Shown here: positions 8,147-54,970 of the stretch, piece by piece | Position numbering within the stretch: the first letter of the stretch is position 1 | How the letters are laid out: the number at the start of each line of letters is the position of its first letter | From: Nitrosomonas sp. JL21 | GTDB taxonomy: Bacteria > Pseudomonadota > Gammaproteobacteria > Burkholderiales > Nitrosomonadaceae | Assembly (NCBI RefSeq): GCF_009833095.1 | Contig: NZ_QRCB01000011.1 | Coordinates: forward strand, 1 to 64,000 | DNA length: 64,000 bases | Reading direction: 5' to 3' | The notes under the pieces: model-generated | Seen by the model: only the letters and a program-made list of their open reading frames with translations | What the model was told of the DNA's origin: nothing | Database searches by the model: none | Position numbers and translations under genes: made by a program

Positions 8147-8482
8147 ATGAAAGAAATAATAAGAAATCTAATTGTTGTATTCGGCTTCATGCCGATCATT
8201 ATTTTCCTCGCAACAACTTGGGTGTGGGCAGCTCAAGAAGATAATTCTGCTTCTAGTCATAGATGGAAAGATGGGGCTGAAATTTATACCAAAATCTGCG
8301 CGTATTGTCATGATGCGCAGGTCGCTCCGCCAATTCGCAATCGGAAACTTCCTTTAGACTATATCCGTAACATTGTTCGCAACGGAAACCGCGCGATGCC
8401 TGCCTTTCGCCCTTCTGAGATTAATGATGAATCGCTGACCAAACTGGCGGAGTTTATTTCACATCAATCATCTCAGCATTAA
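8147..8482 (+). CDS. pchC: Periplasmic cytochrome c subunit of 4-cresol dehydrogenase type
   Basis: 111 residues with a Sec signal peptide (hydrophobic core, cleavage near VWA-A at 28), leaving a very small mature cytochrome of about 83 residues, as in the Pseudomonas p-cresol methylhydroxylase cytochrome. The single heme site is C51-A-Y-C54-H55; M84 (NRAMPAF) is the likely sixth ligand. It would accept electrons one at a time from the flavoprotein encoded at 9425 and pass them to the respiratory chain. GGAGG lies upstream of the ATG. It is the first gene of the cassette and is followed after 15 bases by the Tat-signal protein. The cytochrome could alternatively serve a eugenol- or vanillyl-alcohol-type hydroxylase; the protein family is the same. 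Confidence 0.75.
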   Translation: MKEIIRNLIVVFGFMPIIIFLATTWVWAAQEDNSASSHRWKDGAEIYTKICAYCHDAQVAPPIRNRKLPLDYIRNIVRNGNRAMPAFRPSEINDESLTKLAEFISHQSSQH

Positions 8483-8497
8483 AGGAGGCTGCATATA

Positions 8498-9412
8498 ATG
8501 GATGAAACACGGCGTAACCTCATTAAAGGTATGCTCAGCGGCGGAACGTTGTTGGCTCTGGGGATCCCTGGCATAACCCAAGCAGCTTCAGCTACTCCGA
8601 TCCTCCCCGACAATGCGCGGAATTGTCATTTACTGCTGGGCAACACGCTGATCGGCGAAGCATTCGCCACCGGCGCGCGAGCGGCTTGTGCTCATTGCGG
8701 CCACCCCGGTCAAGATGAACTCGCTACATTCCAACTTGGGGACGAGTTGTTGATCAATCCTCGGCGCATTGCCGATTTTTTGGCGCGATCGCATCACATG
8801 CGTTGGGTTGCCGTCATGGACTACGCGCATGCAGCGATTTTCACGGAACTTGTGCGCAATGCTGACGGACACTTGCTGGCCTTGGGCTCGCACACATCAA
8901 TATCGAATGCTGATGCTGCGTTATCGCTACGGCATAGATGGGCGACGGCATCGCCGGTCTACAGTGCGGGGGGATTGCTGGCGTCCACGCTGATTCAAAA
9001 CAGGCGCAGTTTTTCGATTGTGGAAAATTTCCTGAAGGCACCCTTTCATGACACCGGACTGATGGAAGCATCGTTACCGCAATTTTCTTCGTATAGCTCG
9101 GCTGATCAGCCTGCAACTCATTTACATTGCGCCGGAGTGCCTCTGCCAGAAGCCAGTCAATTAGTTGGCTGGGAAACATCAGTAAGCTGGGATTCTTTAG
9201 CGCCTCAATCGACTGCCTCTGTTATTGAACATCCGCAATTCGGAAATTGGATCGAAATGACGGGTTATGCAGTGGTGGCGGCTGCGTTAGGAGTAGGCAT
9301 ACACCAAGAAGCTTGTTCCCAGCGCGCCTACGTGCACCGGCCGGGTAACCGCAATCTGGATCATGATGGATTAGCGGGAGAACAGTTTGTTTCATTCGTC
9401 ATCGACGTGTAG
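8498..9412 (+). CDS. Tat-exported protein of the phenol-oxidation cassette (PchX-like)
   Basis: 304 residues. The N-terminus TRRNLIKG followed by a hydrophobic run and a TQA-A cleavage site is a near-consensus twin-arginine signal, so the protein should be exported folded. The rest has no fold I can name; it contains CAHCGH and looks soluble. In Pseudomonas a poorly characterised gene, pchX, accompanies the flavoprotein pchF; position (directly before the flavoprotein gene, between it and the cytochrome) suggests this is its counterpart, which is inference. It has AAAGGAGG upstream and ends 12 bases before the flavoprotein start. One plausible role is chaperone and export partner for the flavoprotein, which itself has no signal. 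Confidence 0.6.
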   Translation: MDETRRNLIKGMLSGGTLLALGIPGITQAASATPILPDNARNCHLLLGNTLIGEAFATGARAACAHCGHPGQDELATFQLGDELLINPRRIADFLARSHHMRWVAVMDYAHAAIFTELVRNADGHLLALGSHTSISNADAALSLRHRWATASPVYSAGGLLASTLIQNRRSFSIVENFLKAPFHDTGLMEASLPQFSSYSSADQPATHLHCAGVPLPEASQLVGWETSVSWDSLAPQSTASVIEHPQFGNWIEMTGYAVVAAALGVGIHQEACSQRAYVHRPGNRNLDHDGLAGEQFVSFVIDV

Positions 9413-9424
9413 GGAGAACACAGC

Positions 9425-10969
9425 ATGGCCAGTAAATATATCGCATTACCCAAGGGTGTTTCAGAAAAGGATTTTGATGCAGCCATCAATAATTTTCGTA
9501 AAGTACTGAGCGACGATGCCGTGCTCACCAGCGCAGAGCAGCTTGCGCCATACATCAAGACCATGATGCCGGTTGCTGACGCTGAGCACACACCGTCAGC
9601 GGCGTTGCTCGCGACCACCGTCGAACAGATCCAGCAAATTGTAGCGATTTGCAATCAATACAAAGTGCCGATCTGGATGATTTCCACAGGTAAGAATCTG
9701 GGTTATGGCTCGGCTGCGCCAGCAGAGCGCGGTCAAGTGGTGCTTGATCTGAAGCGCATGAACCGCATCCTCGAAGTGGATAAGGATTTGGCTTTTGCGT
9801 TGGTTGAACCGGGCGTCACTTATCAGCAGCTCTACGATTATATTAAAGAGCACAAACTTGGATTATGGTTATCCATGCCTGCGCCTTCAGCCATTGCCGG
9901 GCCGGTGGGCAATACGCTGGATCGGGGTGTCGGTTATACGCCATATGGAGAGCATTTCTTGTTCGCCTGTGGCATGGAAGTGGTGTTGGCCAATGGCGAG
10001 GTATTGCGCACAGGCATGGGTTCGATGCCGAATTCCAATACTTGGCAGGTTTTCAAATGGGGGTATGGCCCATATTTGGATGGCATTTTCACGCAGTCCA
10101 ACTATGGCATCGTCACTAAATTCGGTTTTTGGTTGATGCCTGAACCGCCGGCGTTTAAGCCGTTCGTTATCCAATATCAGCACGAAGAGGACATCGTTGA
10201 AATTGTCGAAACGATTCGGCCTCTGCGCATCAGTGGGGTCATTCCCAATGCCGTGGTGATTGCCCACGCGCTGTACGAGGCACCGGTAAAAGCCAAGCGG
10301 AGCGATTATGTATCCGGACCAGGCTCAATTCCAGATGAAGCGGTCGATCGAATCATGAAAGACCATAAACTGGGAATCTGGAATGTTTATGCGGCGCTCT
10401 ATGGCACGCAAGAACAGATCGATGTGAACTGGAACATCGTGACGCAGGCGTTCGGCAAGTCCGGCAAGGCAAAAATCCTGACGGAACAGGAAGCGGCGGA
10501 TGATCCCGCTTTTGTGTATCGCGCCAAGCTCATGCGCGGAGAAATGACGCTGACGGAATTTTCGCTTTATAACTGGCGAGGAGGTGGCGGATCGATGTGG
10601 TTCGCGCCGGTTTCGCAAGCTCGGGGTAGTGAAACCCTCAAACAAATGGCGCTGACCAAACAAATTCTTGCGAAATACGGGCTGGATTATTCCGGTGAAT
10701 TCATCGTCGGCATGCGCGATATGCATCATATCGTCGATGTACTATACGACAAGACCGATCCCGAGCAAACCAAAGCGGCTTATCAGTGCTTCGATGAATT
10801 GCTGACCGAATTCTCTGCGCGGGGATATGGAACGTATCGCGTCAATACGGCCTTCATGGATAAAGTTGCTGAAACCTATGGCCCGGTGCAGCGGAAAGTG
10901 CACAAGACGCTCAAGAAAGCGCTGGATCCCAACGGTATTATCGCACCTGGAAAGTCAGGCATTCGTTAG
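9425..10969 (+). CDS. pchF: 4-cresol dehydrogenase-type flavoprotein (VAO family, PchF/eugenol hydroxylase)
   Basis: 514 residues, VAO/PCMH family: FAD-binding domain (about 50-240) with STGKNLGYG, then the substrate domain. Compared with remembered Pseudomonas PchF numbering (offset about two), the active site is kept: Y94, E378, Y382 (the tyrosine that covalently binds FAD), W392, E425, D438, and Y471-R472, which hold the phenol. Differences: K510 where PchF has Arg512, Y422 for Phe424, I436 for Met438, so the substrate may differ. It should oxidise a para-alkylphenol to a 4-hydroxybenzyl alcohol and then the aldehyde, handing electrons to the cytochrome at 8147. No signal peptide is present. 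GGGAGAA precedes the ATG. Eugenol or vanillyl alcohol are alternative substrates. Confidence 0.85.
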   Translation: MASKYIALPKGVSEKDFDAAINNFRKVLSDDAVLTSAEQLAPYIKTMMPVADAEHTPSAALLATTVEQIQQIVAICNQYKVPIWMISTGKNLGYGSAAPAERGQVVLDLKRMNRILEVDKDLAFALVEPGVTYQQLYDYIKEHKLGLWLSMPAPSAIAGPVGNTLDRGVGYTPYGEHFLFACGMEVVLANGEVLRTGMGSMPNSNTWQVFKWGYGPYLDGIFTQSNYGIVTKFGFWLMPEPPAFKPFVIQYQHEEDIVEIVETIRPLRISGVIPNAVVIAHALYEAPVKAKRSDYVSGPGSIPDEAVDRIMKDHKLGIWNVYAALYGTQEQIDVNWNIVTQAFGKSGKAKILTEQEAADDPAFVYRAKLMRGEMTLTEFSLYNWRGGGGSMWFAPVSQARGSETLKQMALTKQILAKYGLDYSGEFIVGMRDMHHIVDVLYDKTDPEQTKAAYQCFDELLTEFSARGYGTYRVNTAFMDKVAETYGPVQRKVHKTLKKALDPNGIIAPGKSGIR

Positions 10970-10977
10970 GTAAATGC

Positions 10978-11003
10978 ACTCATGATTTCTTGAGTTATTT
11001 TTT
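10978..11003 (+). terminator. Weak hairpin with T tract between flavoprotein and alcohol dehydrogenase genes
   Basis: ACTCA (10978-10982) pairs with TGAGT (10991-10995) across an eight-base loop and is followed by TATTTTTT. The five-pair stem is weak, so it may only lower expression of the two downstream dehydrogenase genes relative to the first three. Confidence 0.3.
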
Positions 11004-11047
11004 GGATTTTGGAAGACAGCCCTATTTAATAAAGCGGAGACGAAAAG

Positions 11048-12160
11048 ATGTTAAAAATCAAAGCAGCCGTCATTCGTCAAAAAGGCGGGCCTTTTCAAAT
11101 TGAAGACCTGATTCAAGAAGATCCCCGTCCTGATGAAGTACGTGTCCGCATTGTTGCGGCGGGAATGTGCCATACCGATATGGTGGCGCGAGATCAATTG
11201 TATGATGTGCCTCTGCCGGTGATACTGGGACATGAAGGTTCAGGGATAGTCGAACGCATCGGCAGCGCTGTCAAAAAAGTCGCAGTTGGCGATCATGTCG
11301 TGCTGACTTTCATGTGGTGCGGGCATTGCAAATCGTGTTTACAGGGGAATTTCACTTACTGCGAGCATTTTTACCCGTTGAATTTCGGTGGCGCGCGTGA
11401 AGATGGCAGTGTGGCGACCCATCCTGACAACGGTACGCAAGAACCGATTCACGATCATTTCTTTGGGCAATCGTCCTTTGGCACCTTTGCGCTGGTACAC
11501 GAGCGTAATGTCATCAAAGTACCCAACGATGCGCCCCTGGAACTGCTTGGACCGCTGGGTTGTGGCATTCAGACTGGCGCAGGAGCGGTCATGAATGCGC
11601 TGAAAGTCACCCCTGGTAGCAGCTTTGCCGCTTTCGGCGGCGGCGCGGTGGGACTCAGCGCGGTAATGGCAGCCCGCGCTGCCGGCGCTACGACGATCAT
11701 TTCGGCGGATGTGGTTCCTGCGCGCCTGGCGCTGGCGATGGAACTCGGAGCCACGCACACCATCAACAGCCGCGAAGCCGATCCGGTCGAAGTGGTTCGT
11801 AAAATTACTGGCGGTGGGGCGGATTTTACGCTGGAATCGAGCGGACACCCGGTCGTATTGCGTCAAGCCATCGATGCGCTTGCAATTCGAGGAACGTGCG
11901 GCATCGTCGGCGCGCCGGCGTTGGGCACCGAAGCCAGCTTCGATGTGAATGGCGTGATGACAACGGGAAAACGCATCATCGGCATCGTCGAAGGCGATAG
12001 TAAACCGGATCTTTTCATTCCGGTGCTGGTTGAACTTTATCAACAAGGGAAATTTCCTTTCGACCGGCTGGTAAAATTTTATTCTCTCGACCAGATCAAT
12101 CAAGCTGCTGAAGATAGCGAGAAGGGCGTTACGATCAAACCGATTATCCAGTTAGAATAA
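11048..12160 (+). CDS. Zinc-dependent aryl-alcohol dehydrogenase
   Basis: 370 residues, zinc medium-chain dehydrogenase of the aryl/benzyl alcohol subgroup (XylB-like). Catalytic zinc ligands C41, H62 (GHEGSG) and C172 ([13 protein letters not shown]); structural zinc cysteines C91, C94, C97 and C105; Rossmann glycines GGGAVGLSA at about 197-205, followed by a D at the end of the second strand that favours NAD. The C-terminal stretch (TIKPIIQLE) is typical of the subgroup. It would oxidise 4-hydroxybenzyl alcohol (or a related aryl alcohol) to the aldehyde. A GCGGAGA ribosome-binding site precedes the start. It lies between the flavoprotein and aldehyde dehydrogenase genes, consistent with consecutive steps. 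Confidence 0.85.
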
Positions 12161-12227
12161 AAAATTCATCAATGTTTCGTCAGACAACGGCAACGAAATT
12201 TGGATAACCAAACACGAACAATACATT

Positions 12228-13730
12228 ATGGAAAATAACAAAGAAACTCCCTCCGTCTATTCGAACTTCGATCGATTACCGATCAATGGTCAATGGCGGC
12301 ACGGCAAAGGCGCCAAAGTTTTGCGGAACCTGAATCCCTATGACGGTGGTACGCTGGTCGAGATCCCTCATGCCAATCGCGATGATATGGACGAAGCCTA
12401 TCGCGGAGCTGCCCAGTCGCAACAAGGTTGGTCGGCCTTGATGCCGGGTGAGCGCGCAGCCGTCATGCGCCGCGCCGCGCAAATCATGGAAGAACGCCGT
12501 GAAGAAATCGTATCCTGGATCATTCGTGAGTCTGGCGGCACACGAATCAAGGCAAATCTGGAATGGCATGCCGTCCATGGCGTGCTTTTGGAAGCGGCCA
12601 CATTGCCCTATTTAGTAGAAGGCCGTATTCTGCCAGCCGACATTCCCAGCAAGGAAAGCCGCATGTATCGTAAACCGGTCGGCGTGGTCGGCGTGATCAG
12701 TCCGTGGAATTGGCCATTCCAACTCACGGCTCGTTCCGCCGCGCCGGCACTCGCCGTCGGTAACGCTGTGGTAGTGAAGCCCGCCAGCGATACGCCTGTG
12801 ACAGGAGGGCTGCTGTTTGCGAAAATTCTTGAAGAGGCGGAATTGCCTCCAGGTGTGCTCAGCGTGATCGTCGGTGCAGGTAGCGAAATCGGCGATGCAT
12901 TTGTCACTCATCCAATTCCCCGCGTCATCTCATTTACCGGCTCGACGCCGGTGGGCCGGAATATTGCCAAACTGGCTGCCGAAAGTCCCATGCTGAAACG
13001 GCTGGAATTGGAGCTGGGCGGCAATAGCCCGTTCGTGGTGCTGGATGACGCCGATCTGGAGCGCGCAGTGGAGGCTGCGGTATTCGGCAAATTCCTGCAC
13101 CAGGGACAGACCTGCATGAGCATCAACCGCATCATCGTCGACAAACAACTTCATGATGATTTTGTGCAACGTTTTGCGGAGCGCGTCCGGCAATTAAAAG
13201 CGGGCGATCCCGACGCACCCGATACACTAATCGGTCCGATTATCAATGAAAGTCAATTGAAGGGCTTGCAGCAACGGATTCGGCATGCCGTTTCAGCCGG
13301 CGCAAAGCAAGTCATCGGCGGAGAAGCGATTGGCTCGGTGTTGCCGCCCCATGTATTCGATCACGTGACGAATCAGATGGTTCTGGCTCAAACGGAATCG
13401 TTTGGGCCGATCGTGCCCATCCTTCGTGCGGGCAATGAAGCTGAGGCGCTGACTATCGCCAATGACACCGATCTTGGGCTGGCTGCCGCAGTGTTTACGC
13501 AAGATGTGGAACGCGGCCTTCGGTTCGCGCAACGGCTCGAAGCGGGTATGGTGCATATCAATGATCAGCCGGTCAACGATTTGCCTTACAATCCCTTTGG
13601 CGGCGAAAAAAATTCAGGTATTGGTCGTTTCAATGGCGTTTGGGGCGTGGCAGCATTTACGACTGATCAATGGGTCAGCATACAGCATATGCCTCGTCAT
13701 TATCCCTTCGATGCCCGGAAGATCCCATAA
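12228..13730 (+). CDS. Aromatic aldehyde dehydrogenase (benzaldehyde/vanillin type)
   Basis: 500 residues, ALDH superfamily. Seen: SPWNWPF with N161, K184 in [18 protein letters not shown], the general-base E262 in LELGGNSP, the nucleophile C296 in GQTCMS, and the C-terminal [13 protein letters not shown]. Aromatic-aldehyde dehydrogenases of the vanillin/benzaldehyde type share this pattern. In the cassette it would convert 4-hydroxybenzaldehyde (or a substituted analogue) to the acid with NAD or NADP. The gap to the alcohol dehydrogenase is 67 bases. The ring-cleavage enzymes that would follow (pobA, pca genes) are not in the window. Confidence 0.85.
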
Positions 13731-14948: not shown

Positions 14949-15452
14949 TTAGTTGTTGCACTTCACTTTCTCGGCTTCGGCCAACTGCTTAATATTCTGA
15001 ACCGTCTTGGACACCCCTTCCTTGATGGAAGCACGAACCAGCGCTTCAAAAGGACGCATTACTACCAATAACTCCAGTAACTCAAACGTAAATGTTAATT
15101 TTGTCGAGTTCTCAAGATGGTTAGCTTGCAATTCATAAGAACAACGATAAGGATCGGAGATACCAGTAAATGTTAACCGCTCTTCAGGTATAAAGTCGGA
15201 TATTTTGAAACGGGACTCTGAACGGCGTCCCTGATCAAGGCGTACTTGCCGCCCGATTGTTCCTAATTGCACCGGGCCAGGCGTAATTTTCTCAAGCTCT
15301 TTCACTTCCGGAGACCATTGAGGATAATTCTGAAAGAGATTCTCTCCGATAAATTGAAATAGCTCACTGGCAGAGCATTTCACAATTGTTGATGCACTGC
15401 CTATAACAGGTTCGGTAGAACCTAGATTCAACATGGAACCTAAATTAAACAT
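14949..15452 (-). CDS. SRPBCC (polyketide cyclase-like) protein
   Basis: 167 residues without a signal peptide. The start (SASTIVKCSASELFQFI...NYPQWSPEVKELEKI) and the pattern of strands ending in a long C-terminal helix (MRPFEALVRASIKEGVSKTV) fit the START/SRPBCC hydrophobic-pocket fold, used by polyketide cyclases and lipid- or aromatic-binding proteins. No catalytic residue can be assigned. It is transcribed toward the O-methyltransferase, 134 bases away, so the two may form an operon and act on the same hydrophobic molecule; this is inference from position. The gene is AT-rich and poor in strong ribosome-binding sites. Confidence 0.6.
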   Translation of the reverse strand: MFNLGSMLNLGSTEPVIGSASTIVKCSASELFQFIGENLFQNYPQWSPEVKELEKITPGPVQLGTIGRQVRLDQGRRSESRFKISDFIPEERLTFTGISDPYRCSYELQANHLENSTKLTFTFELLELLVVMRPFEALVRASIKEGVSKTVQNIKQLAEAEKVKCNN

Positions 15453-24222: not shown

Positions 24223-25218
24223 ATGTCGTACTCAAAAGAATTGTTTGTTCGTCATGTCGTCATGATCGTGTTGACAGTCTGCTGCGCCCCTTCGCTATGG
24301 GCTGCCAAAGCGACAGGTGTTTTTTCTGCACAGCAGGTATGCCCTGCCTATGTTTCAAAAAATAACCTCACCAATCCGGACAACGCGCAGATTCAGGCGG
24401 GAAGCGATTACACCGTTCTTGAAGCGAATCGGCCCAATCAACCGGATTGGTACCGTGTCATCGTATCCTCAGCCCAGCCTCGGGAACGCTGGGTCAGCGC
24501 CGATTGCGGTCAAGTGAAATTAACCCAACCGGATACGAATGGCAATGCGCAATGCGGGGTTGCCGGGCAAGCGGATAGTTTCGTGCTGGCGCTGTCCTGG
24601 CAGCCGGCTTTTTGTGAAACAAAACCGGATAAAGCGGAGTGTGCAATTACTGATCCGCAGGTCTATCAGGCGAGGCACTTCACGTTGCACGGCTTGTGGC
24701 CCAACAAGCGAACTTGCGGCATACAGTATGGTTTCTGCGGTGACGTCAAAGCCCAGAAGCAGAATTTCTGCGATTATCCGCAGCTTTCATTAACTCCCGC
24801 TTCACGCGCGGCGTTGGCCGAGGTCATGCCGAGTGTGACGGCCGGTTCCTGTCTCGAGCGGCACGAATGGCATAAGCATGGCACGTGCCAATCCGGCTCG
24901 ATGGATGATTATTTCGACTTGGCGGTGGATTTGATACGTCAGTTCAACGATGCCGGTATGGCCTACTTCATGAACCGCCGGATCGGCCAGGATGTGCGTA
25001 CCGCTGATTTTCTCGAACGCGCTGCCGCTGTGCTGGGGTCATCCGTGCGCGACCGTATCAAATTGACCTGCCAACAAGGCATGCTGGTGGAGGTTCAATT
25101 GAATTTGAATGCCGATCTAAGCCGCGGCGGCGATCTCGAAAAGTTGATCGTGAATGCACCGGTACAAGGAAATTCCAATTGCGGCGAAACCTTCCGCGTC
25201 GATGCGATTGGCCAATGA
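24223..25218 (+). CDS. Secreted RNase T2-family ribonuclease with N-terminal SH3-like segment
   Basis: 331 residues. Signal peptide to about SLWA-AKA (27). Residues 33-100 (CPAYVSKNNLT...DYTVLEANRPNQPDWYRVIV...RWVSADCG) look like an SH3-like or wall-binding module. Residues 118-330 are the RNase T2 domain: CAS I FTLHGLWPN with H156 and CAS II HEWHKHGTC with E215, K218 and H219. Paired cysteines suit disulfides in the periplasm or outside. It cleaves RNA through 2',3'-cyclic phosphates without base preference. GGAGG precedes the start. The added N-terminal module is less usual. Confidence 0.85.
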   Translation: MSYSKELFVRHVVMIVLTVCCAPSLWAAKATGVFSAQQVCPAYVSKNNLTNPDNAQIQAGSDYTVLEANRPNQPDWYRVIVSSAQPRERWVSADCGQVKLTQPDTNGNAQCGVAGQADSFVLALSWQPAFCETKPDKAECAITDPQVYQARHFTLHGLWPNKRTCGIQYGFCGDVKAQKQNFCDYPQLSLTPASRAALAEVMPSVTAGSCLERHEWHKHGTCQSGSMDDYFDLAVDLIRQFNDAGMAYFMNRRIGQDVRTADFLERAAAVLGSSVRDRIKLTCQQGMLVEVQLNLNADLSRGGDLEKLIVNAPVQGNSNCGETFRVDAIGQ

Positions 25219-42033: not shown

Positions 42034-43572
42034 ATGCCAGCGTCGATTTTTTCTCATTGGGTACGATGGATAAGCTGGATTTCTGTGGCTGGGCGTTTGA
42101 AACGCAGCCCGATCTTTTGTGCTTGGCTGGTGCTTTCATGGAAACAAACGGTTACTGGCATCAACGCTCTGTGCCCGGTCTTACCCATTCTCCGCCTGCG
42201 CTTGGCGGGTCTATTGCTGATTTCTTTGGCCGCAGGTTGTGCGATGGGTCCGGATTTTGTTCGGCCACAGATCGAAACCGCCGAGAAGTTCCGCGTTGTC
42301 AGTGAAGCCGAGGGAGACTCGATTGCTAATCTGCCGTGGTGGGCGCTGTTCCAGGATGAAGAATTGCAACGGCTGATTACCCAGGCGCTCGTCGAAAACA
42401 AGAATCTCAAGCAAGCAGTCGCCAGCGTGGAAGAATTTCAAGCGCGCTCACGCACGGCCTGGATGGATTTTGCTCCAAACATGGACATCAGTGCCAATGC
42501 GCCGGCATTTGGCACACTGGGCGGGTTTCTGCGCCCCGGCTTCGCAACCCCCTTTAATTATTTCGGCCAAACCACATTGAACTGGGAAATCGATATCTGG
42601 GGCAGGATTCGCCGCTCTACTGAAGCCGCAAGGGCTGACCTGATGGCGCAGGAAGAAAACCGGCGGGCGGTCATTCTGACGCTGATCAGCGCTGTGGCGC
42701 AGTCGTATTTCGATCTCTTGCAGTTTGATTTTCAGCTCGATATTGCGCATCGTGCTCTGTCCTCATGGGAAGAATCGGTGCGTATTTCGCGCGCGCAGTT
42801 GCAGGCTGGGATCATTTCGCGTTTGGATCTGGATCAGTTCGAAGCCGAGCGCGCCAATGCGTCTGCCCGTGTTGCTGAGCTGCAACGGCAAGTGACACAG
42901 AAGGAAAACGAATTGAGCGTTCTAGTGGGCAAGAATCCGACTGCCATTGTGCGCGGACGGTTGCTCACGGAACAATTGAACATGGTGGAAGTGCCGGCGG
43001 GTTTGCCGTCCGAACTGTTGCAACGCCGCCCGGATATCCTGCAAGCCGAGCAAGCGCTGGCAGCGGCGACCGCGCGCATCGGCATGGCTAAGGCTGCGCG
43101 GTTTCCGAAATTATCATTGACCGGTTTTCTCGGTGTCGCCAGTCCGGCGCTATCGAATCTGCTGTTGTCCGGCAGTGAATTCGGCGTGGGCGGGCTTGGG
43201 TTGGCTGGGCCATTGCTGAACGCGCAAAGCCTGGGATTTGAACAGCGGGCGGCGGAGGCACAGGCCCGGCAGGCGCTGGCGCAGTATGAACAGACGATAT
43301 TGGTGGCATTCAAGGAAGTGGACGATGCACTGATCGCCATTCATACCGCCAATGAACAACTCAAGGCGCAGCAGCAACAGGTTGATGCATTGCATTCGGC
43401 GCTGCATGTCGCCGATCTTCGCTACCGCGGTGGAATTACCAGTTATGTCGATGTTCTGCTCGCGAAACGCACGCTGTTCGATGCGGAGTTTTCATTGACG
43501 GCGATGCGCCGCTTTCATCTGGTGTCGATCATTCAGCTGTATAAAGCACTGGGTGGAGGCTGGGCATCGTGA
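42034..43572 (+). CDS. NodT-family outer-membrane efflux lipoprotein
   Basis: 512 residues as read, but the true start is uncertain. The lipobox LAAGC (C69) directly follows a hydrophobic stretch, which places the mature N-terminus at C69; the 48 residues before the hydrophobic run are unusually long, so a later non-ATG start is possible. The mature protein (MGPDFVRPQIETAEKF, WWALFQDEELQRLI) is typical of TolC-like outer-membrane channels with two OEP repeats (about 120-300 and 310-500). It is the exit duct for the RND pump at 45530. It leads the four-gene efflux set. Confidence 0.88.
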   Translation: MPASIFSHWVRWISWISVAGRLKRSPIFCAWLVLSWKQTVTGINALCPVLPILRLRLAGLLLISLAAGCAMGPDFVRPQIETAEKFRVVSEAEGDSIANLPWWALFQDEELQRLITQALVENKNLKQAVASVEEFQARSRTAWMDFAPNMDISANAPAFGTLGGFLRPGFATPFNYFGQTTLNWEIDIWGRIRRSTEAARADLMAQEENRRAVILTLISAVAQSYFDLLQFDFQLDIAHRALSSWEESVRISRAQLQAGIISRLDLDQFEAERANASARVAELQRQVTQKENELSVLVGKNPTAIVRGRLLTEQLNMVEVPAGLPSELLQRRPDILQAEQALAAATARIGMAKAARFPKLSLTGFLGVASPALSNLLLSGSEFGVGGLGLAGPLLNAQSLGFEQRAAEAQARQALAQYEQTILVAFKEVDDALIAIHTANEQLKAQQQQVDALHSALHVADLRYRGGITSYVDVLLAKRTLFDAEFSLTAMRRFHLVSIIQLYKALGGGWAS

Positions 43573-43715
43573 TGGCCATATACAACGAGACGATTGTAGC
43601 AGGTAACGAGCGATGGTCAGCAGGCATGGCGAAATTGGCCGAAAGAGCGCAGTAGTTTTTCAGATTCCTTTAACGATAACAGCATATACGAACATAATTC
43701 GTACAGGAGAATATT

Positions 43716-44267
43716 GTGAGTCATTATAAGATTGCGACGATCATTGGAAGTCTTCGCAAGGATTCGTTCAACCGGAAACTTGCCGATGCCATCGTGAAAC
43801 TGGCTCCGGCCGAATTTTCATTTAAGCTGATTCCGATCGATGATCTGCCTCTTTATAACCAGGATGACGATACCAACCAGACCGAACCGGTGAAACGTTT
43901 CAAGGCGGAAATCCTGAAATCGAACGGCTTGTTGTTTGTGACTCCGGAATACAATCGCTCCATCCCAGGTGTGCTCAAGAACGCGATCGATCATGCCTCG
44001 AGACCGTACGGTCAAAGCGTTTGGGCGGGTAAACCTGCCGGTATTCTGGGTGTCTCGATCGGCGCGAGCGGAACGGCAATGGCTCAGCAGCATTTGCGCA
44101 ATGTACTGGCGTATCTGGATGTGCCGACGCTGGGTCAGCCCGAAGCATTCATCCAGGTCAAAGAAGGGTTGTTCGATGACAATGGCAATATTGGACCGGC
44201 CAGCAAGAACTTTTTGCAGAACTGGATGGATCGCTATGTTGCGTGGGTGGATCGACATGGATGCTAA
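43716..44267 (+). CDS. NADPH-dependent FMN reductase (ChrR-like)
   Basis: 183 residues from GTG 43716, with ACAGGAGA upstream. The motifs GSLRKDSFNRKLADA (phosphate loop), TPEYNRSIPGVLKNAIDHASRP and KPAGILGVSIGASG define the flavodoxin-like NADPH-FMN reductase family; the ChrR/YieF branch reduces quinones and chromate. It sits between the outer-membrane channel and the periplasmic adaptor genes of the RND efflux set, so it is likely to be co-expressed with the pump. This is an uncommon place for such an enzyme. The physiological substrate is unknown. Confidence 0.88.
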   Translation: MSHYKIATIIGSLRKDSFNRKLADAIVKLAPAEFSFKLIPIDDLPLYNQDDDTNQTEPVKRFKAEILKSNGLLFVTPEYNRSIPGVLKNAIDHASRPYGQSVWAGKPAGILGVSIGASGTAMAQQHLRNVLAYLDVPTLGQPEAFIQVKEGLFDDNGNIGPASKNFLQNWMDRYVAWVDRHGC

Positions 44268-44309
44268 TGCTTTGAATGTTGCGTATTCTCAGCGGAATCT
44301 GCAGGCTGA

Positions 44310-45533
44310 ATGATGACTAGGGCACATTTTTTAGGACGTCCTACCGGACATATGAGCCGATGCGCGGCTGCCTTCTGTGTGGTAATGGTTGTTGTCATGC
44401 TTGGCGGTTGTGCGGATAAGGGGTCCGAGCAAGCCGCACCGCCGTTACCGCAAGTGGACGTCATCACGGTGGCTACCCAAGCGATCCAGGATGAACCGGA
44501 GTTCATCGGCCAGACCGAAGCATTCCGTCCGGTTGAGATTCGCTCGCAAGTCAGCGGTATCATCAAGAAAGTGTATTTTACCGAAGGTCGCAACGTCAAA
44601 AAGGGCGACCGGCTTTATTTGATCGATCCGGTACCGTTCAATGCCGTTTATTTGAGCACCAAAGCCAGGGTCGCGCAGGCCCAGGCGCGCCTCACTCAGG
44701 CAAAACTCGATTTGTCGCGCGTCAAACCGTTACTGGAACAGCAGGCAGTCAGTAAAAAGGATGTCGATGATGCGCAGGCTGAGTTCCTCGGCGCCAAAGC
44801 CATGCTCGAGGCGGCGCAGAATGATGTGATCAAGGCGAAATTTGACCTGGATAATACCGTTATCACAGCGCCCGTGAAGGGCCGTATCGGCCGTAGTCAT
44901 TTTTATGAAGGGCGGTTGATTTCGGCGCAAACTGCGTTGCTGGCTACGATCGATCAACTCGATCCGATGTACGTCAATGTCAGCGTTCCCGAAAGCTACC
45001 TGCTGCGCCGCCGCCGCGAATTGGCGGAACAGAAGGTGCAACGGCCGGATATTTTCCAGTTGAGGGGTATGATGACTTTTTCGGATGGCAGTGTGTATCC
45101 GGAGGAAGGTGTGCTGGATTTTGCCGACGTGGCGTTACGCCCGGAAACCGGCACCCTGCAGGGGCGGTTTGTGTTTCCGAATCCCGAGGGCAATTTGGCG
45201 CCGGGGCATTCGTATTTTTATCCCGGCCAGTTTGTCAAAATTCGCATCAAAGGTTATGTCCGCACCGATGCCATCCTGATTCCGCAGCGTGCCGTGCAAC
45301 AGGGCCCGAGTGGATCGTTCGTGTATGTCATCAATCAGGAGGAGAAAGCCGAGTTACGCCCTATCCGCGCCAGTGCATGGCGGAGCAAGGATTGGCTGAT
45401 CGAAGAGGGGTTGCGTCCGGGCGACAGAGTCGTCGTGGAAGGGTTCTTCCGCATCCTGCCGGGCGCGGAAGTCCGGGCTGTTGCCGCAGCGCCGTCACAT
45501 TCTGAAAAACCTACGGTGCAAAGCCAGCCATGA
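44310..45533 (+). CDS. RND efflux periplasmic adaptor (AcrA/MexA type)
   Basis: 407 residues. Lipobox LGGC (C34) at the end of a hydrophobic run; M15 is a possible later start. The mature protein has the half-motif EIRSQVSGIIKKVYFTEGRNVKKGD, a coiled-coil hairpin (about 105-170), the second lipoyl half TAPVKGRIGRSHFYEGRLI and beta-barrel and membrane-proximal domains. It links the inner-membrane pump to the outer channel. The stop overlaps the next start by four bases (ATGA at 45530-45533). No repressor of the AcrR kind is adjacent. Confidence 0.92.
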   Translation: MMTRAHFLGRPTGHMSRCAAAFCVVMVVVMLGGCADKGSEQAAPPLPQVDVITVATQAIQDEPEFIGQTEAFRPVEIRSQVSGIIKKVYFTEGRNVKKGDRLYLIDPVPFNAVYLSTKARVAQAQARLTQAKLDLSRVKPLLEQQAVSKKDVDDAQAEFLGAKAMLEAAQNDVIKAKFDLDNTVITAPVKGRIGRSHFYEGRLISAQTALLATIDQLDPMYVNVSVPESYLLRRRRELAEQKVQRPDIFQLRGMMTFSDGSVYPEEGVLDFADVALRPETGTLQGRFVFPNPEGNLAPGHSYFYPGQFVKIRIKGYVRTDAILIPQRAVQQGPSGSFVYVINQEEKAELRPIRASAWRSKDWLIEEGLRPGDRVVVEGFFRILPGAEVRAVAAAPSHSEKPTVQSQP

Positions 45534-48500
45534 CCTCGCATTTCTTTATCGACCGGCCGATTTTTGCGTCAGTGCTTTCGATGATCATTGTGGTGCTTGG
45601 CCTTGTGGCGCTGCAGAAATTACCGATTGCGCAATTCCCGCAAATCACGCCGCCGATGGTGCAGATCGACGCCGATTATCCCGGTGCGAGTGCAGAGGTT
45701 GTGGCGGAAGCCGTGGCGCGCCCGATCGAAGTGCAATTGCCCGGCATCGACAACCTGCTGTACTACGAATCCACCAGCACCAACGACGGCCATATGACGA
45801 TGAAGCTGACGTTCGAGATCGGAACCGATGTGGACATCGCGCAAGTGCAGACGCAGAACCGGCAACGGCTGGCCGAACCGCAACTGCCGGACGAGGTTGT
45901 TCGCCAGGGTATTACCGTCAAAAAGACATCGCCGGATTTATTGGCGGTGGTGGCGTTGAGCTCGACCGATCCCAAGCATGATACGGTTTTCCTGTCAAAT
46001 TACGCACTATTGCGTATCTTGGATAATGTCAAGCGATTACCCGGCGTCGGCGATGCAATCATTTTCGGCGGGCAGAATTATTCGATGCGGTTAATTCTCG
46101 ATCCGGTGCGCATGGCGCAATTGAATGTCACACCGAGCGAGATTGCCGCGGTCGTGCGCGAGCAGAACCGTGATTTCCCAGCCGGCCGGATCGGCCGCGA
46201 ACCGACGCCGAAGGGTACCGAATTGACCATTCCGGTCATTACTCATGGCCGCATGAGCGAAGTGAAGGAATTCGAGGACATGATCATCCGTGCGTATCCG
46301 GATGGCGCGATGGTGCGCATGCGCGATGTCGCTCGCGTCGAATTGGGGGCGCAATCGTATGACTTGCAAGGGCGATGGAACGGCAAACCGAACACTTTCT
46401 TGTTGACATTTCTGGCTCCCGGCGCCAATGCGCTCGAGACTGTCCGGCAAGTCCGCCAGGAAATGGATACGCTCTCAAGAACGTTTCCCGCCGGGGTTTC
46501 TTTTGATATTCCGTACGATACGACGACCTTCATCGATGTGTCGATCCGTGAAGTGGTCAAGACGCTCGGTGAGGCGATGCTGCTGGTCATTCTGGTGGTT
46601 TTCCTGTTTCTGCAAAGTTGGCGCGCAACGCTGATTCCTGCCATTGCTGTGCCGATTTCGCTGATCGGAACGCTTGCCGGTATGGATGCATTGGGATTTT
46701 CGATCAACACGCTGACGCTGTTCGGCATGGTGCTGGCGATCGGTATTGTCGTGGACGATGCCATCGTGGTGGTCGAGAATGTCGAGCGCCACATGACGCA
46801 AGACGGCTTGGCGCCGGTCGATGCGGCCAAGAAAGCGATGAGCGAAGTGACCGGACCGGTGATTGCGATCGTATTGGTACTGGCCGCGGTGTTTGTGCCG
46901 GTTGCTTTTCTGGGCGGCATTACCGGGGAATTGTATAAGCAGTTTGCGATTACCATTGCTTTGTCGGTGGCGATTTCCGGCTTTGTCGCATTGACGCTGA
47001 GTCCAGCCTTGTGCGCTCTGATTCTGAAGCCGGGACATGGCGCACCCCGTGGGTTCTGGAAATTATTCAACCGCTGGTTCGATTGGACGCAAGCCCGCTA
47101 TGTCGGCACGGTCGGCATCGTGATCAAGCGATCGATATTTGCGCTGGCTATTTTTGCCTGCCTGCTCGTAGCCATTGCCGGTCTGTTCAGGATGATTCCC
47201 GGCAGTTTTCTGCCGGAAGAGGATCAAGGCTATTTCATTACCGTGGTGCAGTTGCCCGATGGCGCTTCGATGCCACGGACCATCGAGGTCCTGAAAAAAA
47301 TCGAAAGTTATTTTCAGTCCATTCCAGCAGTGCATTCAACGGATGCCATGGCGGGTCAAAATTTTGTGTTTAGCACGCGTGGAACCAACCAGGCCACCAT
47401 GTTCATTCCATTGCATCACTGGGATGAGCGCCCGGATCCTGCCCAGCAAGTGCCTGGTTTGATCGGCGCTGCTTTTCAGGAATTCGCGAAAATACCGGAA
47501 GCGTTGATTCTGGCTTTCAATGCGCCATCGATCAGCGGGTTGGGATCGACCGGCGGGTTCTCGGCGCAATTGCAGGATCCGAGTGGCGGTGACTTTGCGG
47601 CATTCGCCGCGGTAGCGCAGGAATTCATTTCTAAAGCGACGGAGCATCCGGCGATTGCGGTGGCTGCGACCAATTTCCGGCTCAGTGCGCCCAGGCTCTA
47701 TGCGAAGGTCGACCGGGAGCGAGCCAAAGCCCTGGGCGTACCGATTTCCGAGGTGTTCGACACAATGCAGGCGTATTTTGGCAATATGTATATCAATGAT
47801 TTCGTTAAATTTGGTCGTATCTATCGAGTCCAGACCGAAGCACTACCGGAATACCGATCGAATCCGGACGACATCAGCAAAATTTATGTCCGTGCAAGAT
47901 CTGGTGAGACTCAGACCATGATTCCGTTGAATTCTGTGGTTACCACCGAATTCAACAGCGGCCCTGATCCAGTGACGCATTTCAATGGCTACAATTCGGC
48001 GTTGGTATTGGGAAGTGCCGCACCCGGATATAGCTCCGGCCAAGCGCTCGAAGCGCTGCAGCAAGTGGCTGACGAAGTCTTGACGCCGCGCGGATATTCC
48101 ATCGATTGGAGCGGAATTTCGTTGCAGGAGCGCAAGGCCAGCGGACAATCGATCTTTGTTTTCGCCTTTGCGCTGTTGATGGTTTTTTTGGTGCTGGCGG
48201 CGTTGTATGAGAGCTGGTCTATTCCGTTTGCGGTGATTCTTGCAATCCCCTTCGGTATTCTGGGCGCATTCGTGGCGATTTGGCTCCGCGAAATGACCAA
48301 TGATATTTATTTTCAGATCGGATTGGTGACATTGATCGGGTTGGCAGCCAAGAATGCGATTCTGATTGTCGAGTTTGCCAACCAACGGGTCAGCGCCGGT
48401 ATGCCGCTGGTTGATGCGGCGTTGGATGCTGCGCGGTTGCGCTTTCGGCCCATCATCATGACATCGATGGCCTTCATTCTGGGGGTTTTACCACTCGTGA

Positions 48501-48646
48501 TGGCGACCGGCGCAGGCGCGGCCAGCCGTAATTCAATCGGAACCGGTGTGTTCGGAGGAATGCTGGCGGCGACTTTTCTGGCTATTTTCTTCGTGCCGCT
48601 ATTTTTTGTGTTGATCGGAAAAATCGCCCGGCGCGCGAAGCGTTAG
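45530..48646 (+). CDS. RND multidrug efflux pump (HAE1/AcrB type)
   Basis: 1038 residues, standard length. Proton-relay residues D409 and D410 (GIVVDDAIVVVENVERHM) and K941 (GLAAKNAILIVEFA) are intact. The start MTSHFFIDRPIFASVLSMII and the two large periplasmic loops fit hydrophobic/amphiphilic efflux pumps, as opposed to heavy-metal pumps (the D-D pair and not the metal-pump signature). It exports drugs or hydrophobic toxicants together with the adaptor encoded immediately upstream. It converges with the response-regulator gene downstream. Confidence 0.94.
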   Translation: MTSHFFIDRPIFASVLSMIIVVLGLVALQKLPIAQFPQITPPMVQIDADYPGASAEVVAEAVARPIEVQLPGIDNLLYYESTSTNDGHMTMKLTFEIGTDVDIAQVQTQNRQRLAEPQLPDEVVRQGITVKKTSPDLLAVVALSSTDPKHDTVFLSNYALLRILDNVKRLPGVGDAIIFGGQNYSMRLILDPVRMAQLNVTPSEIAAVVREQNRDFPAGRIGREPTPKGTELTIPVITHGRMSEVKEFEDMIIRAYPDGAMVRMRDVARVELGAQSYDLQGRWNGKPNTFLLTFLAPGANALETVRQVRQEMDTLSRTFPAGVSFDIPYDTTTFIDVSIREVVKTLGEAMLLVILVVFLFLQSWRATLIPAIAVPISLIGTLAGMDALGFSINTLTLFGMVLAIGIVVDDAIVVVENVERHMTQDGLAPVDAAKKAMSEVTGPVIAIVLVLAAVFVPVAFLGGITGELYKQFAITIALSVAISGFVALTLSPALCALILKPGHGAPRGFWKLFNRWFDWTQARYVGTVGIVIKRSIFALAIFACLLVAIAGLFRMIPGSFLPEEDQGYFITVVQLPDGASMPRTIEVLKKIESYFQSIPAVHSTDAMAGQNFVFSTRGTNQATMFIPLHHWDERPDPAQQVPGLIGAAFQEFAKIPEALILAFNAPSISGLGSTGGFSAQLQDPSGGDFAAFAAVAQEFISKATEHPAIAVAATNFRLSAPRLYAKVDRERAKALGVPISEVFDTMQAYFGNMYINDFVKFGRIYRVQTEALPEYRSNPDDISKIYVRARSGETQTMIPLNSVVTTEFNSGPDPVTHFNGYNSALVLGSAAPGYSSGQALEALQQVADEVLTPRGYSIDWSGISLQERKASGQSIFVFAFALLMVFLVLAALYESWSIPFAVILAIPFGILGAFVAIWLREMTNDIYFQIGLVTLIGLAAKNAILIVEFANQRVSAGMPLVDAALDAARLRFRPIIMTSMAFILGVLPLVMATGAGAASRNSIGTGVFGGMLAATFLAIFFVPLFFVLIGKIARRAKR

Positions 48647-51540: not shown

Positions 51541-51589
51541 CCATCGGGTTTTTCTTGTTAATTTAATTTTGCGTATAAGGAGTATCACT

Positions 51590-52612
51590 ATGTCAATCTC
51601 CAGTCTTCTCGTACCGGCGATATTGTTCTTTGCGTTGGGTATGTTTGCTTGTCTCATCAAATCGGATCTCAAATTTCCGCCAGACATGCACAAAATGATC
51701 GTGATCTATTTGCTGATCGGTATTGGGCTGCATGGCGGCAAGGAACTTGCCGGATCCAATATGGCGGATGCTCTACCCGCGGTATGGGCTGCGCTTGCAT
51801 TTGGATGCGGACTTCCTATCATCGCGTATATCATCTTGCGATGGTTGGGGAAAATCGATCCACTCAATGCCGCAGCCATTTCCGCGCATTATGGCTCGGT
51901 GAGCGCAGGTACTTACATGACGGCAGTTGCTTTCCTGGCTGGTCTGGGCGTCACGTACGAAGCTTATCCCGTCATTATGCTGGCGATCATGGAATCTCCG
52001 GCGATCATGATCGGCTTGGTTCTGGCGGGGTATTCCCGTCGTATTCTGGGCGGTGCGGCCAAGAATGACAAAGGAATGATGAAGCATCTGGTCATCGATG
52101 CCTTTACCAACGGTAGTATTCTGTTGTTGTTCGGTGCAATGGCGATTGGCTGGATGGTTTCGGAACCCAGCTACAAAAAGATCGAGCCTTTCTTTGAACT
52201 GATTTTCATGGGTGCGCTGTGTATTTTCCTGTGTGATATGGGGATGGAAGCTGGCAAAAGATTATCTGAATTCAAGTCGGTGGGTGTTTTCCTGGTCAGC
52301 TTTGGCATTGCCATGCCCTTGATTGGTGCGGCAGTCGGTTTGTTCGTGGGTCATTTCCTGCTGGGTTATTCCGTAGGAGGCATCACGCTGGTGACTGTGT
52401 TGGCCGCGAGCTGCTCCTATATTGCGGTTCCCCCCGCAATGCGGCTGGCGGTTCCGGAAGCCAATCCGTCGTTTTATCTGACCTTGTCGCTCGGCGTTAC
52501 TTTCCCGTTCAATGTGGTGGTCGGTATTCCCAGCTATTATGCGGCAGCGCAGTATTTGCATGAAACTTATTATCCATGGGGTACGGTAGCGCAGGTCGCC
52601 CTAAATCAATGA
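51590..52612 (+). CDS. sbtA: Sodium-dependent bicarbonate permease SbtA
   Basis: 340 residues from the ATG at 51590 (ATAAGGAGT upstream); the longer reading from 51569 is not supported. About ten membrane segments in two inverted halves. The motifs HYGSVSAGTYMTAVAFL and ASCSYIAVPPAMRLAVPEANP are the discontinuous-helix regions that carry the bicarbonate and sodium sites in SbtA (PF05982). It imports bicarbonate at the inner membrane for carbon fixation. It is followed by the PII-like SbtB gene 52 bases later. This pairing is well known from cyanobacteria and also occurs in other autotrophs. Confidence 0.9.
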   Translation: MSISSLLVPAILFFALGMFACLIKSDLKFPPDMHKMIVIYLLIGIGLHGGKELAGSNMADALPAVWAALAFGCGLPIIAYIILRWLGKIDPLNAAAISAHYGSVSAGTYMTAVAFLAGLGVTYEAYPVIMLAIMESPAIMIGLVLAGYSRRILGGAAKNDKGMMKHLVIDAFTNGSILLLFGAMAIGWMVSEPSYKKIEPFFELIFMGALCIFLCDMGMEAGKRLSEFKSVGVFLVSFGIAMPLIGAAVGLFVGHFLLGYSVGGITLVTVLAASCSYIAVPPAMRLAVPEANPSFYLTLSLGVTFPFNVVVGIPSYYAAAQYLHETYYPWGTVAQVALNQ

Positions 52613-53443: not shown

Positions 53444-54970
53444 ATGACATGGAAGCAAATTCAAATTACCTGTTGGACAGTATTTTTCATTATTGGGTGT
53501 TTCCTATGGAGTCCTCACCTCTTTGCTGCTGAAGCTGAAAAAACCCCGCCGGCTCAGAAAATTCCACCCGACCCATCGCAGAAATCGATCATCCTCCTGA
53601 ACAATAACACCGCAGCTAATGGGACAAATGGTGCCAATGGTACAAACGGTGAGTCGTTCAGTGCGCAGGAAACGGTTGGGCATACCCGCTTCGACTTCGA
53701 TCGGTTGACCGGATTGATGGAAAACCATAAAACGCCGCTTGCCGCACTGGCGCCGGATTGGCTCAATCTGGCGGTTGAGCATCGTACTCGTTATGACGTG
53801 TTCGACAATGGATTTACCCGGACTATTCCGGGTTTTAATGATCAGATCCACCAAAGAACGCGGTTTCTAATGGAAATTCAGAAAATCATCGATCCGCTGC
53901 GTTTTACCCTCGAAATCACCGATATCCGCGCGCCGCTCGCGAATTTCGGCCAAGATCATTCACCCGCATTTGCCAACCACTTTGATTTCACGCAACTGCA
54001 TCTTGATTTGATCACGAAAGATTTGTTGGGAACGGGTTATGCTGCAAAATTCGAAGTCGGGCGGCTGGTGATGGATTTCGGCGAAGCACGCTTGATCGGT
54101 GGTCATCGGTGGGGGCCATTTACGCCCACGTTTGATGGGATGCAATTAACCGTTGGCAATGACAAGGAAAAATGGGGGCTTCGGGTATTTGGCACCCGGC
54201 CCGTCAACCGGGAACCGACGCACCTGGATTGGAATACGCCGGAAACTTATTTTTCTGGCGCGCAAGTCACCAGCCGGCATTTGCCCTGGGCAAATGTCGA
54301 TGCCTATTTCTTTCAGTTGAATGAAGGAAATAAGCTCAGAAAACGAAATCTGTCGACGACAGGCTTCAGGTTATTTGCCAAGCCAACCGCAGGGAAAATG
54401 GATTATGAAATCGAATCGATGTATCAATTTGGCGATACTCAGGACACCAGTGTTTTCGCGCATCGGCATCATGGAGAAGTAGGCTATTCATTCAAGACGG
54501 CGATGCCTTTCCGGTTGATTTATCTGTTCGATTATTCTTCCGGCGACCGCGATCCAAATAAGAATTTCGATATTCTGTACGCGAAACGCCGGGTCGAATA
54601 TGGTCCCACCGGTATGTTCGGTCCATTTTTCCCATCCAATCTGTTTTCGCCTGTGGGCTTTCGTGCAACCTTCATCCCTACGCCCACCGTCAGGCTGATG
54701 ATGTCACATCGGGCCTATTGGCTGGCCAATAAACATGGCGCTTATGTCGGCAGCGGTTTGCAGGATCCGACGGGGCGCGCAGGCAGTTTCCTGGGTAATA
54801 TGCTGGATGTCAGCATCGGTTGGGATCCGCAGTGGAGTTTCTTGAAACGCGTCAGCTTCGATATTGGCTATAGCCATATCTTCAAGGGCGATTTCTTTGA
54901 AAAAGTGCCGCAAAGCCCGGGTATGGCCGATACCAATTATGGCTATACGATGGCAACCCTCAAATTCTAG
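53444..54970 (+). CDS. Outer-membrane beta-barrel protein, alginate-export-like
   Basis: 508 residues. Signal peptide with cleavage near LFA-A (28). A low-complexity stretch NGTNGANGTNGES (about 59-71) precedes the barrel. From about 85 on, alternating hydrophobic/polar strands end in a terminal aromatic residue (MATLKF), the outer-membrane signature. The repeats (RTRYDVFDNGF, FGTRPVNREPTH, and FDYSSGDRDPNKNFD) recall the alginate-export porin family (PF13372), found in many non-alginate organisms too. It probably admits small anionic solutes, which could include bicarbonate given the neighbour genes; this last point is speculation. Confidence 0.75.
   Translation: MTWKQIQITCWTVFFIIGCFLWSPHLFAAEAEKTPPAQKIPPDPSQKSIILLNNNTAANGTNGANGTNGESFSAQETVGHTRFDFDRLTGLMENHKTPLAALAPDWLNLAVEHRTRYDVFDNGFTRTIPGFNDQIHQRTRFLMEIQKIIDPLRFTLEITDIRAPLANFGQDHSPAFANHFDFTQLHLDLITKDLLGTGYAAKFEVGRLVMDFGEARLIGGHRWGPFTPTFDGMQLTVGNDKEKWGLRVFGTRPVNREPTHLDWNTPETYFSGAQVTSRHLPWANVDAYFFQLNEGNKLRKRNLSTTGFRLFAKPTAGKMDYEIESMYQFGDTQDTSVFAHRHHGEVGYSFKTAMPFRLIYLFDYSSGDRDPNKNFDILYAKRRVEYGPTGMFGPFFPSNLFSPVGFRATFIPTPTVRLMMSHRAYWLANKHGAYVGSGLQDPTGRAGSFLGNMLDVSIGWDPQWSFLKRVSFDIGYSHIFKGDFFEKVPQSPGMADTNYGYTMATLKF

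What the first reader, a model, noticed from the sequence alone, without database searches (positions are those of the whole stretch)
8147..13730. A complete p-cresol/4-alkylphenol oxidation cassette in an autotroph-like chromosome
Five same-strand genes give cytochrome, Tat protein, VAO-type flavoprotein, aryl-alcohol dehydrogenase and aldehyde dehydrogenase: a path from a para-alkylphenol to a 4-hydroxybenzoate-type acid. The flavoprotein keeps the active-site tyrosines, glutamates, aspartate and arginine of Pseudomonas p-cresol methylhydroxylase. The surrounding chromosome looks like that of a Nitrosomonas-like autotroph, in which aromatic catabolism would be unexpected. No ring-cleavage genes are present, so the product may be excreted, stored, used in a biosynthesis or only detoxified. 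Cytochrome-linked electrons from phenols could also feed the respiratory chain.
Basis: partly seen in the sequence, partly recalled or inferred. Interest (0 to 1): 0.75.

Follow-up and report, generated by a model that had tools for sequence, protein, structure and literature searches.

The report
Nitrifier-specific p-cresol oxidation gene cassette
This ammonia-oxidising bacterium carries genes of the type that oxidise p-cresol-like phenols, and the key enzyme belongs to a branch found almost only in nitrifying bacteria of two phyla, which suggests nitrifiers passed it among themselves to handle phenols.

Summary
The cassette is real: pchC (cytochrome c), pchX (Tat protein), pchF (VAO-type flavoprotein), a benzyl-alcohol-type dehydrogenase and a 4-hydroxybenzaldehyde-type dehydrogenase at 8147-13730. 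PchF is 63% identical to Pseudomonas p-cresol methylhydroxylase (PCMH), keeps ten of eleven checked active-site positions (R512 is K, as in nearly all relatives), and its partners match the same pathway. The host is an ammonia oxidiser (Nitrosomonas; HAO found). The unexpected part is phylogenetic. All relatives of 76% identity or more form one clade (support 100/99) from Nitrosomonas, Nitrosospira/Nitrosovibrio, Ca. Nitrotoga and Nitrospira (another phylum); the next relatives are at most 73%. Nitrospira PchF is 80-88% identical where UvrB is 57-58%, so the genes moved between nitrifiers; two Gallionellaceae loci share only the ~4-kb pchC-X-F-adh block. The genome has a second, diverged cassette, flanked by WrbA and two ring-cleavage-type dioxygenases. 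Quinone/FMN reductases flank 24/41 clade loci versus 1/23 others. PobA and ThiH are absent and UbiC present: against growth through protocatechuate, endogenous p-cresol, or quinone-precursor supply. Most likely role: oxidising external para-alkylphenols to hydroxybenzoates, electrons passing to cytochrome c. Substrate and physiological role are not shown.

The parts
8147..8482 (+). pchC: periplasmic c-type cytochrome subunit (signal peptide, CAYCH, RAMPAF methionine)
   Evidence: ORF; Pfam Cytochrome_CBB3 6e-19; only PDB match 1dii_C PCMH cytochrome
8498..9412 (+). pchX: Tat-signal protein of unknown function, found between pchC and pchF in many PCMH loci; proposed export escort of PchF (inference)
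   Evidence: No Pfam/NCBIfam/PHROG match; 41-member alignment with invariant RR, F56, R120, H132, H146, W251, S299; model pLDDT 81 without a clear PDB match
9425..10969 (+). pchF: VAO/PCMH-family flavoprotein, 514 aa
   Evidence: 1dii_A 777 bits; 63% identity to P. putida PchF; catalytic residues kept; nitrifier clade 100/99
11048..12160 (+). adh: zinc aryl-alcohol (benzyl-alcohol-type) dehydrogenase
   Evidence: 5tnx 518 bits, 1f8f benzyl alcohol dehydrogenase 467 bits; nitrifier-locus clade
12228..13730 (+). aldh: 4-hydroxybenzaldehyde-type aldehyde dehydrogenase
   Evidence: 9jw2 4-hydroxybenzaldehyde dehydrogenase 663 bits
13777..14814 (-). O-methyltransferase (PF00891), convergent; found beside cassettes also in Nitrosomonas L043 and L052 and Nitrosospira L073; membership uncertain
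14949..15452 (-). SRPBCC / Polyketide_cyc2 protein, travels with the O-methyltransferase in the same three other loci; membership uncertain

Best explanation
A p-cresol-methylhydroxylase-type module. PchF, exported to the periplasm (probably with the Tat-signal protein PchX, since it has no signal of its own), oxidises a para-alkylphenol through a quinone methide and hydrates it to the 4-hydroxybenzylic alcohol and on to the aldehyde. Electrons leave through PchC to the periplasmic cytochrome c pool, which nitrifiers already use. ADH and ALDH interconvert and oxidise the products to a 4-hydroxybenzoate-type acid. The module was gained by and passed between nitrifiers and is most likely used to remove inhibitory external phenols (p-cresol, 4-ethylphenol and the like) and to gain a few extra electrons, not for carbon growth. 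Shown here: gene content, homology, residue conservation, clade, transfer, missing PobA and ThiH. Inferred: substrate, location of PchF, escort role of PchX, detoxification role.
For: All annotated enzymes have the matching p-cresol-pathway enzyme as best or near-best solved relative. Catalytic residues invariant in 41/41 clade members. One nitrifier clade, 100/99; the ADH tree agrees. PchF 80-88% in Nitrospira against UvrB 57-58%, and 91-93% in Nitrotoga against UvrB 76-77%. Quinone/FMN reductases beside the cassette in 9 of 9 genomes checked, where 2-5 such genes per genome give about 1-2% chance each, and in 24/41 clade loci against 1/23 others. LigB-type dioxygenase beside pchC in most Nitrosomonas copies. 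No PobA in 10 cassette genomes, with the control ringing. Strong purifying selection on PchF: dN 0.022 with dS about 1.1 between the genome's two copies.
Against: No activity, expression or growth data. Purifying selection this strong could mean one specific substrate rather than assorted xenobiotics. Eight PchF positions are fixed in the nitrifier clade and never seen outside it; three of them (425, 432, 439) lie in the active-site stretch around E427-H436-D440, so the preferred substrate may differ from p-cresol. MHPP, one para-substituted phenol, was not measurably degraded by N. europaea and N. multiformis in short assays (PMC13056722), though whether those strains carry the cassette was not checked.
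Confidence: 0.66

Rival explanations
1. The module makes a specific aromatic metabolite for the nitrifier itself (signal, pigment or protective phenolic), with O-methyltransferase, SRPBCC, dioxygenases or sulfotransferase as tailoring enzymes.
For: Strong purifying selection on PchF and ADH; the O-methyltransferase and SRPBCC pair lies beside cassettes in Nitrosomonas (window, L043, L052) and Nitrosospira (L073); sulfotransferase and intradiol dioxygenase near copy 2.
Against: Tailoring genes differ from locus to locus (OMT/SRPBCC in 3 of 41 loci); presence is patchy within genera; no core biosynthetic gene seen nearby; the transferred core is the catabolic quartet.
Confidence: 0.15
2. It is a true carbon/energy pathway (mixotrophy): 4-hydroxybenzoate or a side product is ring-cleaved by the LigB-type or Tat intradiol dioxygenase.
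For: LigB and intradiol genes flank 18 and 3 of 41 cassettes; copy 2 of this genome has both.
Against: No PobA in 10 cassette genomes; the LigB protein belongs to the 4,5-DOPA-dioxygenase group, a widespread enzyme not tied to 4-hydroxybenzoate; the N. europaea model states that it lacks enzymes to mineralise aromatics (PMC8853641).
Confidence: 0.12
3. It supplies 4-hydroxybenzoate for ubiquinone from p-cresol or tyrosine.
For: The end product would be 4-hydroxybenzoate.
Against: Chorismate lyase UbiC is in the genome; ThiH, a source of p-cresol, is absent; most family genomes lack the cassette.
Confidence: 0.02
4. Recent contamination or chance arrival of heterotroph genes with no role in nitrifiers.
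For: Four Nitrosomonas genomes carry only the generic 66-67% type.
Against: Nitrifier clade found in many genomes including the finished N. defluvii chromosome FP929003, same gene order, saturated synonymous divergence under strong constraint.
Confidence: 0.02

Closest known systems
p-Cresol methylhydroxylase (PchCF, 4-cresol dehydrogenase, Pseudomonas putida; PDB 1dii)
   Same: Flavoprotein 63% identical, small cytochrome c partner, catalytic residues, aldehyde dehydrogenase alongside
   Different: Separate nitrifier clade with eight clade-specific residues, longer PchX than in most other PCMH loci, a co-transferred aryl-alcohol dehydrogenase, quinone reductases nearby, autotrophic hosts without PobA
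Halomonas-type PCMH loci (L094-L119)
   Same: pchC, pchF, aldh and adh within about 6 kb
   Different: PchF 66-68%, other gene order, intradiol-dioxygenase pair nearby, no quinone reductase
Vanillyl-alcohol oxidase / eugenol oxidase
   Same: VAO-family sequence and active-site plan
   Different: Much lower scores (about 390-470 bits against 777); they are oxidases without a cytochrome subunit (general knowledge)
Benzyl alcohol dehydrogenase 1f8f and 4-hydroxybenzaldehyde dehydrogenase 9jw2
   Same: Closest or near-closest solved relatives of ADH and ALDH
   Different: Substrate specificity not tested here

Membership tests
p-cresol methylhydroxylase (PchCF) | VAO-family flavoprotein with the FAD-linking Tyr384 and active-site Tyr95/Glu380/Glu427/His436/Asp440/Tyr473/Arg474 | tested here: met
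   All kept in window and all 41 clade members; residue roles from general knowledge of PCMH
p-cresol methylhydroxylase (PchCF) | Arg512 (present in P. putida PchF; not treated as family-defining) | tested here: not met
   Lys510 in the window; K also in 22 of 23 other PchF relatives compared, so it does not exclude membership
p-cresol methylhydroxylase (PchCF) | Dedicated small c-type cytochrome subunit encoded next to it | tested here: met
   pchC 8147-8482, only PDB match 1dii_C
p-cresol methylhydroxylase (PchCF) | Groups with PCMH rather than other VAO enzymes | tested here: met
   Tree; 1dii best PDB match by 200 bits
p-cresol methylhydroxylase (PchCF) | Oxidation of p-cresol with transfer of electrons to cytochrome c | not testable with these tools
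   Needs an enzyme assay
p-cresol to 4-hydroxybenzoate pathway | 4-hydroxybenzaldehyde dehydrogenase | tested here: met
   ALDH best solved match 9jw2; sequence level only
p-cresol catabolism via protocatechuate | 4-hydroxybenzoate 3-hydroxylase PobA in the genome | tested here: not met
   TIGR02360 not over cut-off in 10 cassette genomes, a control genome rings
Nitrifier-restricted PchF clade (proposed here) | All PchF of at least 76% identity come from ammonia or nitrite oxidisers | tested here: met
   nitrification inferred from genus, HAO or UvrB; one member (L058, Gallionellaceae bin) has no independent proof of nitrification
VAO / eugenol oxidase | Oxidase without cytochrome partner | tested here: not met
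   Cytochrome partner gene present

The most novel reading that the evidence does not exclude
Nitrifiers of two phyla share, by repeated transfer among themselves, a dedicated phenol-oxidising flavocytochrome module tuned to a substrate other than p-cresol. It couples a phenolic that matters to nitrifiers in particular, such as a plant-made or neighbour-made nitrification inhibitor, to the periplasmic cytochrome c pool, with a flavodoxin-fold quinone reductase keeping the resulting quinones in check.
Probability: 0.25. Interest if true: 0.8.

Novelty: new variant of a known kind. Interest (0 to 1): 0.6.

Why it matters
The N. europaea metabolic model in PMC8853641 gives AMO as the key enzyme for all aromatic oxidation in this group. 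A dedicated cytochrome-linked enzyme, present in nitrite oxidisers that have no AMO, would give a different, testable route for p-cresol loss in nitrifying sludge (Silva et al. 2014, cited in PMC11761499) and perhaps for tolerance to phenolic nitrification inhibitors. Gene sharing between ammonia and nitrite oxidisers across phyla would also record their close physical partnership.

Tried and rejected
Ubiquinone-precursor role: UbiC present. Endogenous p-cresol from thiamine synthesis: ThiH absent in the own genome and not over cut-off in 11 others. Gene conversion as the reason for near-identical PchF copies: synonymous sites are strongly diverged in pchF too. Nitrotoga nested inside Nitrosomonas as proof of direction: the AU test does not force it (p 0.43), so only transfer, not its direction, is claimed. 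PchX as a dye-decolorizing peroxidase: E 0.07, chance level; as a periplasmic-binding-protein-like fold, including 4-hydroxybenzoate-binding proteins 4evq and 4evs: Z below 8, within the noise range the tool states, and no Foldseek match at E 0.001. Close relatives on plasmids: no PchX beyond a chance match, PchF at most 66%. Literature: no held paper links p-cresol methylhydroxylase to Nitrosomonas, and none found linked it to Nitrosospira, Nitrospira or Nitrotoga; most subscription papers are not held, including the N. defluvii genome paper. AMO (PF02461) was not found in the own draft genome, but HAO was, so a gap in the assembly is the likely cause.
Full report
Observation. The five genes are present as described. 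PchF matches the flavoprotein of Pseudomonas p-cresol methylhydroxylase with 777 bits over its full length, 200 bits more than any other solved VAO-family enzyme, and is 63% identical to it. The small cytochrome finds only the PCMH cytochrome in the PDB. The ALDH finds 4-hydroxybenzaldehyde dehydrogenase first and the ADH finds benzyl alcohol dehydrogenase second, after an unassigned zinc ADH. The residues that hold the flavin and the phenolate in PCMH are kept, except R512, which is Lys in almost all relatives. That is far beyond chance and supports PCMH-type chemistry.

Host. The window's genome belongs to a genus that holds N. europaea (its record L053 gives the same UvrB place as genome G014), and it encodes hydroxylamine oxidoreductase. 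AMO was not found in the draft. The host is therefore an ammonia oxidiser with, in all likelihood, a gap in the assembly.

Distribution. In the family, 44 of 125 genomes carry PchF of at least 84% identity: 27 of 85 in the window's genus and 17 of 23 in the Nitrosospira-type genus; four more carry only a 66-67% type. A scan of genomes of 84,980 species returned named sources: every relative of 80% or more is from Nitrosomonas, Nitrosospira, Nitrosovibrio, Ca. Nitrotoga or an unnamed Gallionellaceae bin, or Nitrospira including the finished N. defluvii chromosome; records with odd titles were resolved by UvrB and HAO (L043 and L061 are Nitrosomonas-like, L069 is Nitrospira-like). The next relatives reach at most 73% to any clade member compared (74% by tblastn for L079). 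Of 150 Gallionellaceae genomes only four have the clade type. Of 175 Nitrospiraceae, 14 have it, two of them broken or split, and a fifteenth shows only a 75% fragment; one of them has an AMO gene and so is probably comammox. Of 399 genomes across the order, only Nitrosomonas and one genome whose cassette lies at the same place as that of Nitrotoga MKT have it. The scan used exact peptide patterns, so a diverged non-nitrifier member could have been missed, but members above 80% should mostly not have been.

Tree and transfer. The nitrifier sequences form one clade with 100/99 support, and ADH gives the same grouping, apart from Nitrotoga fabula, whose ADH is of another kind. UvrB, as a yardstick, is 80-84% between the window and the Nitrosospira-type genus, 76-77% to Nitrotoga and 57-58% to Nitrospira, while PchF is 84-90%, 91-93% and 80-88%. 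Transfer between phyla is hence the simplest reading. Two Gallionellaceae loci share only a 4.0-kb block, pchC to adh, at 92% DNA identity, with unrelated flanks: the quartet is the mobile unit. An AU test does not force Nitrotoga inside Nitrosomonas, so direction and number of transfers stay open.

Second cassette. The genome has a second copy (L021), PchF 96%, ADH 86%, but PchX and PchC only about 60%. Synonymous sites are strongly diverged in all four genes, so PchF is held by strong purifying selection (dN 0.022, dS 1.1), not by recent copying. This copy is flanked by WrbA, a LigB-type extradiol dioxygenase, a Tat intradiol dioxygenase, a sulfotransferase and a LysR regulator. The nearest relative of the window locus (L052) has the order uvrB, wrbA, ligB, pchC, pchX, pchF, adh, aldh, omt, srpbcc: the window locus is the same without wrbA and ligB.

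Partners. A flavodoxin-fold NAD(P)H:quinone/FMN reductase (WrbA or two other PF03358 groups) lies within 6.5 kb of pchF in 24 of 41 clade loci and in 1 of 23 others, and that one is Nitrosomonas halophila, a nitrifier with the generic PchF. In nine genomes checked by domain search, all nine have such a gene near a cassette; with 2-5 such genes per genome the chance is about 1-2% each. The positions differ between lineages (before ligB, before pchC, between pchF and adh, after adh), so the pairing arose more than once. Loci are related, so the counts are not independent. This suggests that quinone-type products or flavin reduction matter wherever nitrifiers run this enzyme.

Mechanism. Shown: gene content, sequence relations, conserved residues, clade, transfer. 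From knowledge of PCMH: quinone-methide chemistry, water as oxygen source, electrons to cytochrome c, periplasmic location. Inferred: PchF has no signal peptide, PchX has an RR Tat signal and occurs between pchC and pchF in PCMH loci of many bacteria, so PchX may carry folded PchF across the membrane. Its model shows no clear match to a solved fold. The acid produced cannot go through PobA, is not needed for ubiquinone (UbiC present), and p-cresol is not made by ThiH in this genome. An external para-alkylphenol, oxidised for detoxification with a gain of electrons, fits best. A nitrifier-specific substrate is possible: eight PchF positions are fixed only in this clade, three of them near E427, H436 and D440; this was noticed after the fact and is a lead, not a test.

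Novelty. The enzyme kind is known. No held paper was found that connects it with nitrifiers, and the N. europaea model ascribes aromatic oxidation to AMO (PMC8853641). A paper on plant-made inhibitors saw no degradation of one para-substituted phenol, MHPP, in short assays (PMC13056722), which counts mildly against the inhibitor-removal idea. The finding is a new, nitrifier-confined variant of a known enzyme module, with a clear set of experiments to test its role.

Noticed in passing
window 42034-48646: RND efflux operon (outer-membrane factor, PF03358 FMN/quinone reductase 43716-44267, membrane-fusion protein, AcrB-type pump). The reductase resembles the group beside the PCMH cassette in N. 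eutropha and Nitrotoga; in Nitrosospira briensis (L073) an RND pump lies directly downstream of the cassette.
   Followed up: partly
window 51569-52612: SbtA-type Na+-dependent bicarbonate transporter (Sbt_1, E 2e-107), fitting an autotroph.
   Followed up: partly
window 24223-25218: RNase T2 family protein with a signal-like start and about 100 extra N-terminal residues, not expected in a chemolithoautotroph.
   Followed up: no
window 53444-54970: Alginate-export-type outer-membrane protein (Alginate_exp, E 3e-46); no alginate genes were looked for.
   Followed up: no
L098, L101, L117: A Nitrosomonas bin, N. eutropha BJ4 and N. halophila carry a separate, Pseudomonas-like PCMH operon (67%) instead of the nitrifier type: at least one further independent acquisition.
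   Followed up: partly
L066 5083-8440: In N. defluvii a Rieske-FMN_red fusion protein and a FAD/NAD reductase lie upstream of the cassette, an unusual electron-transfer set.
   Followed up: no
window 8498-9412: PchX is a fast-evolving Tat protein family of PCMH operons with no Pfam entry; eight invariant residues including two histidines and a tryptophan.
   Followed up: partly
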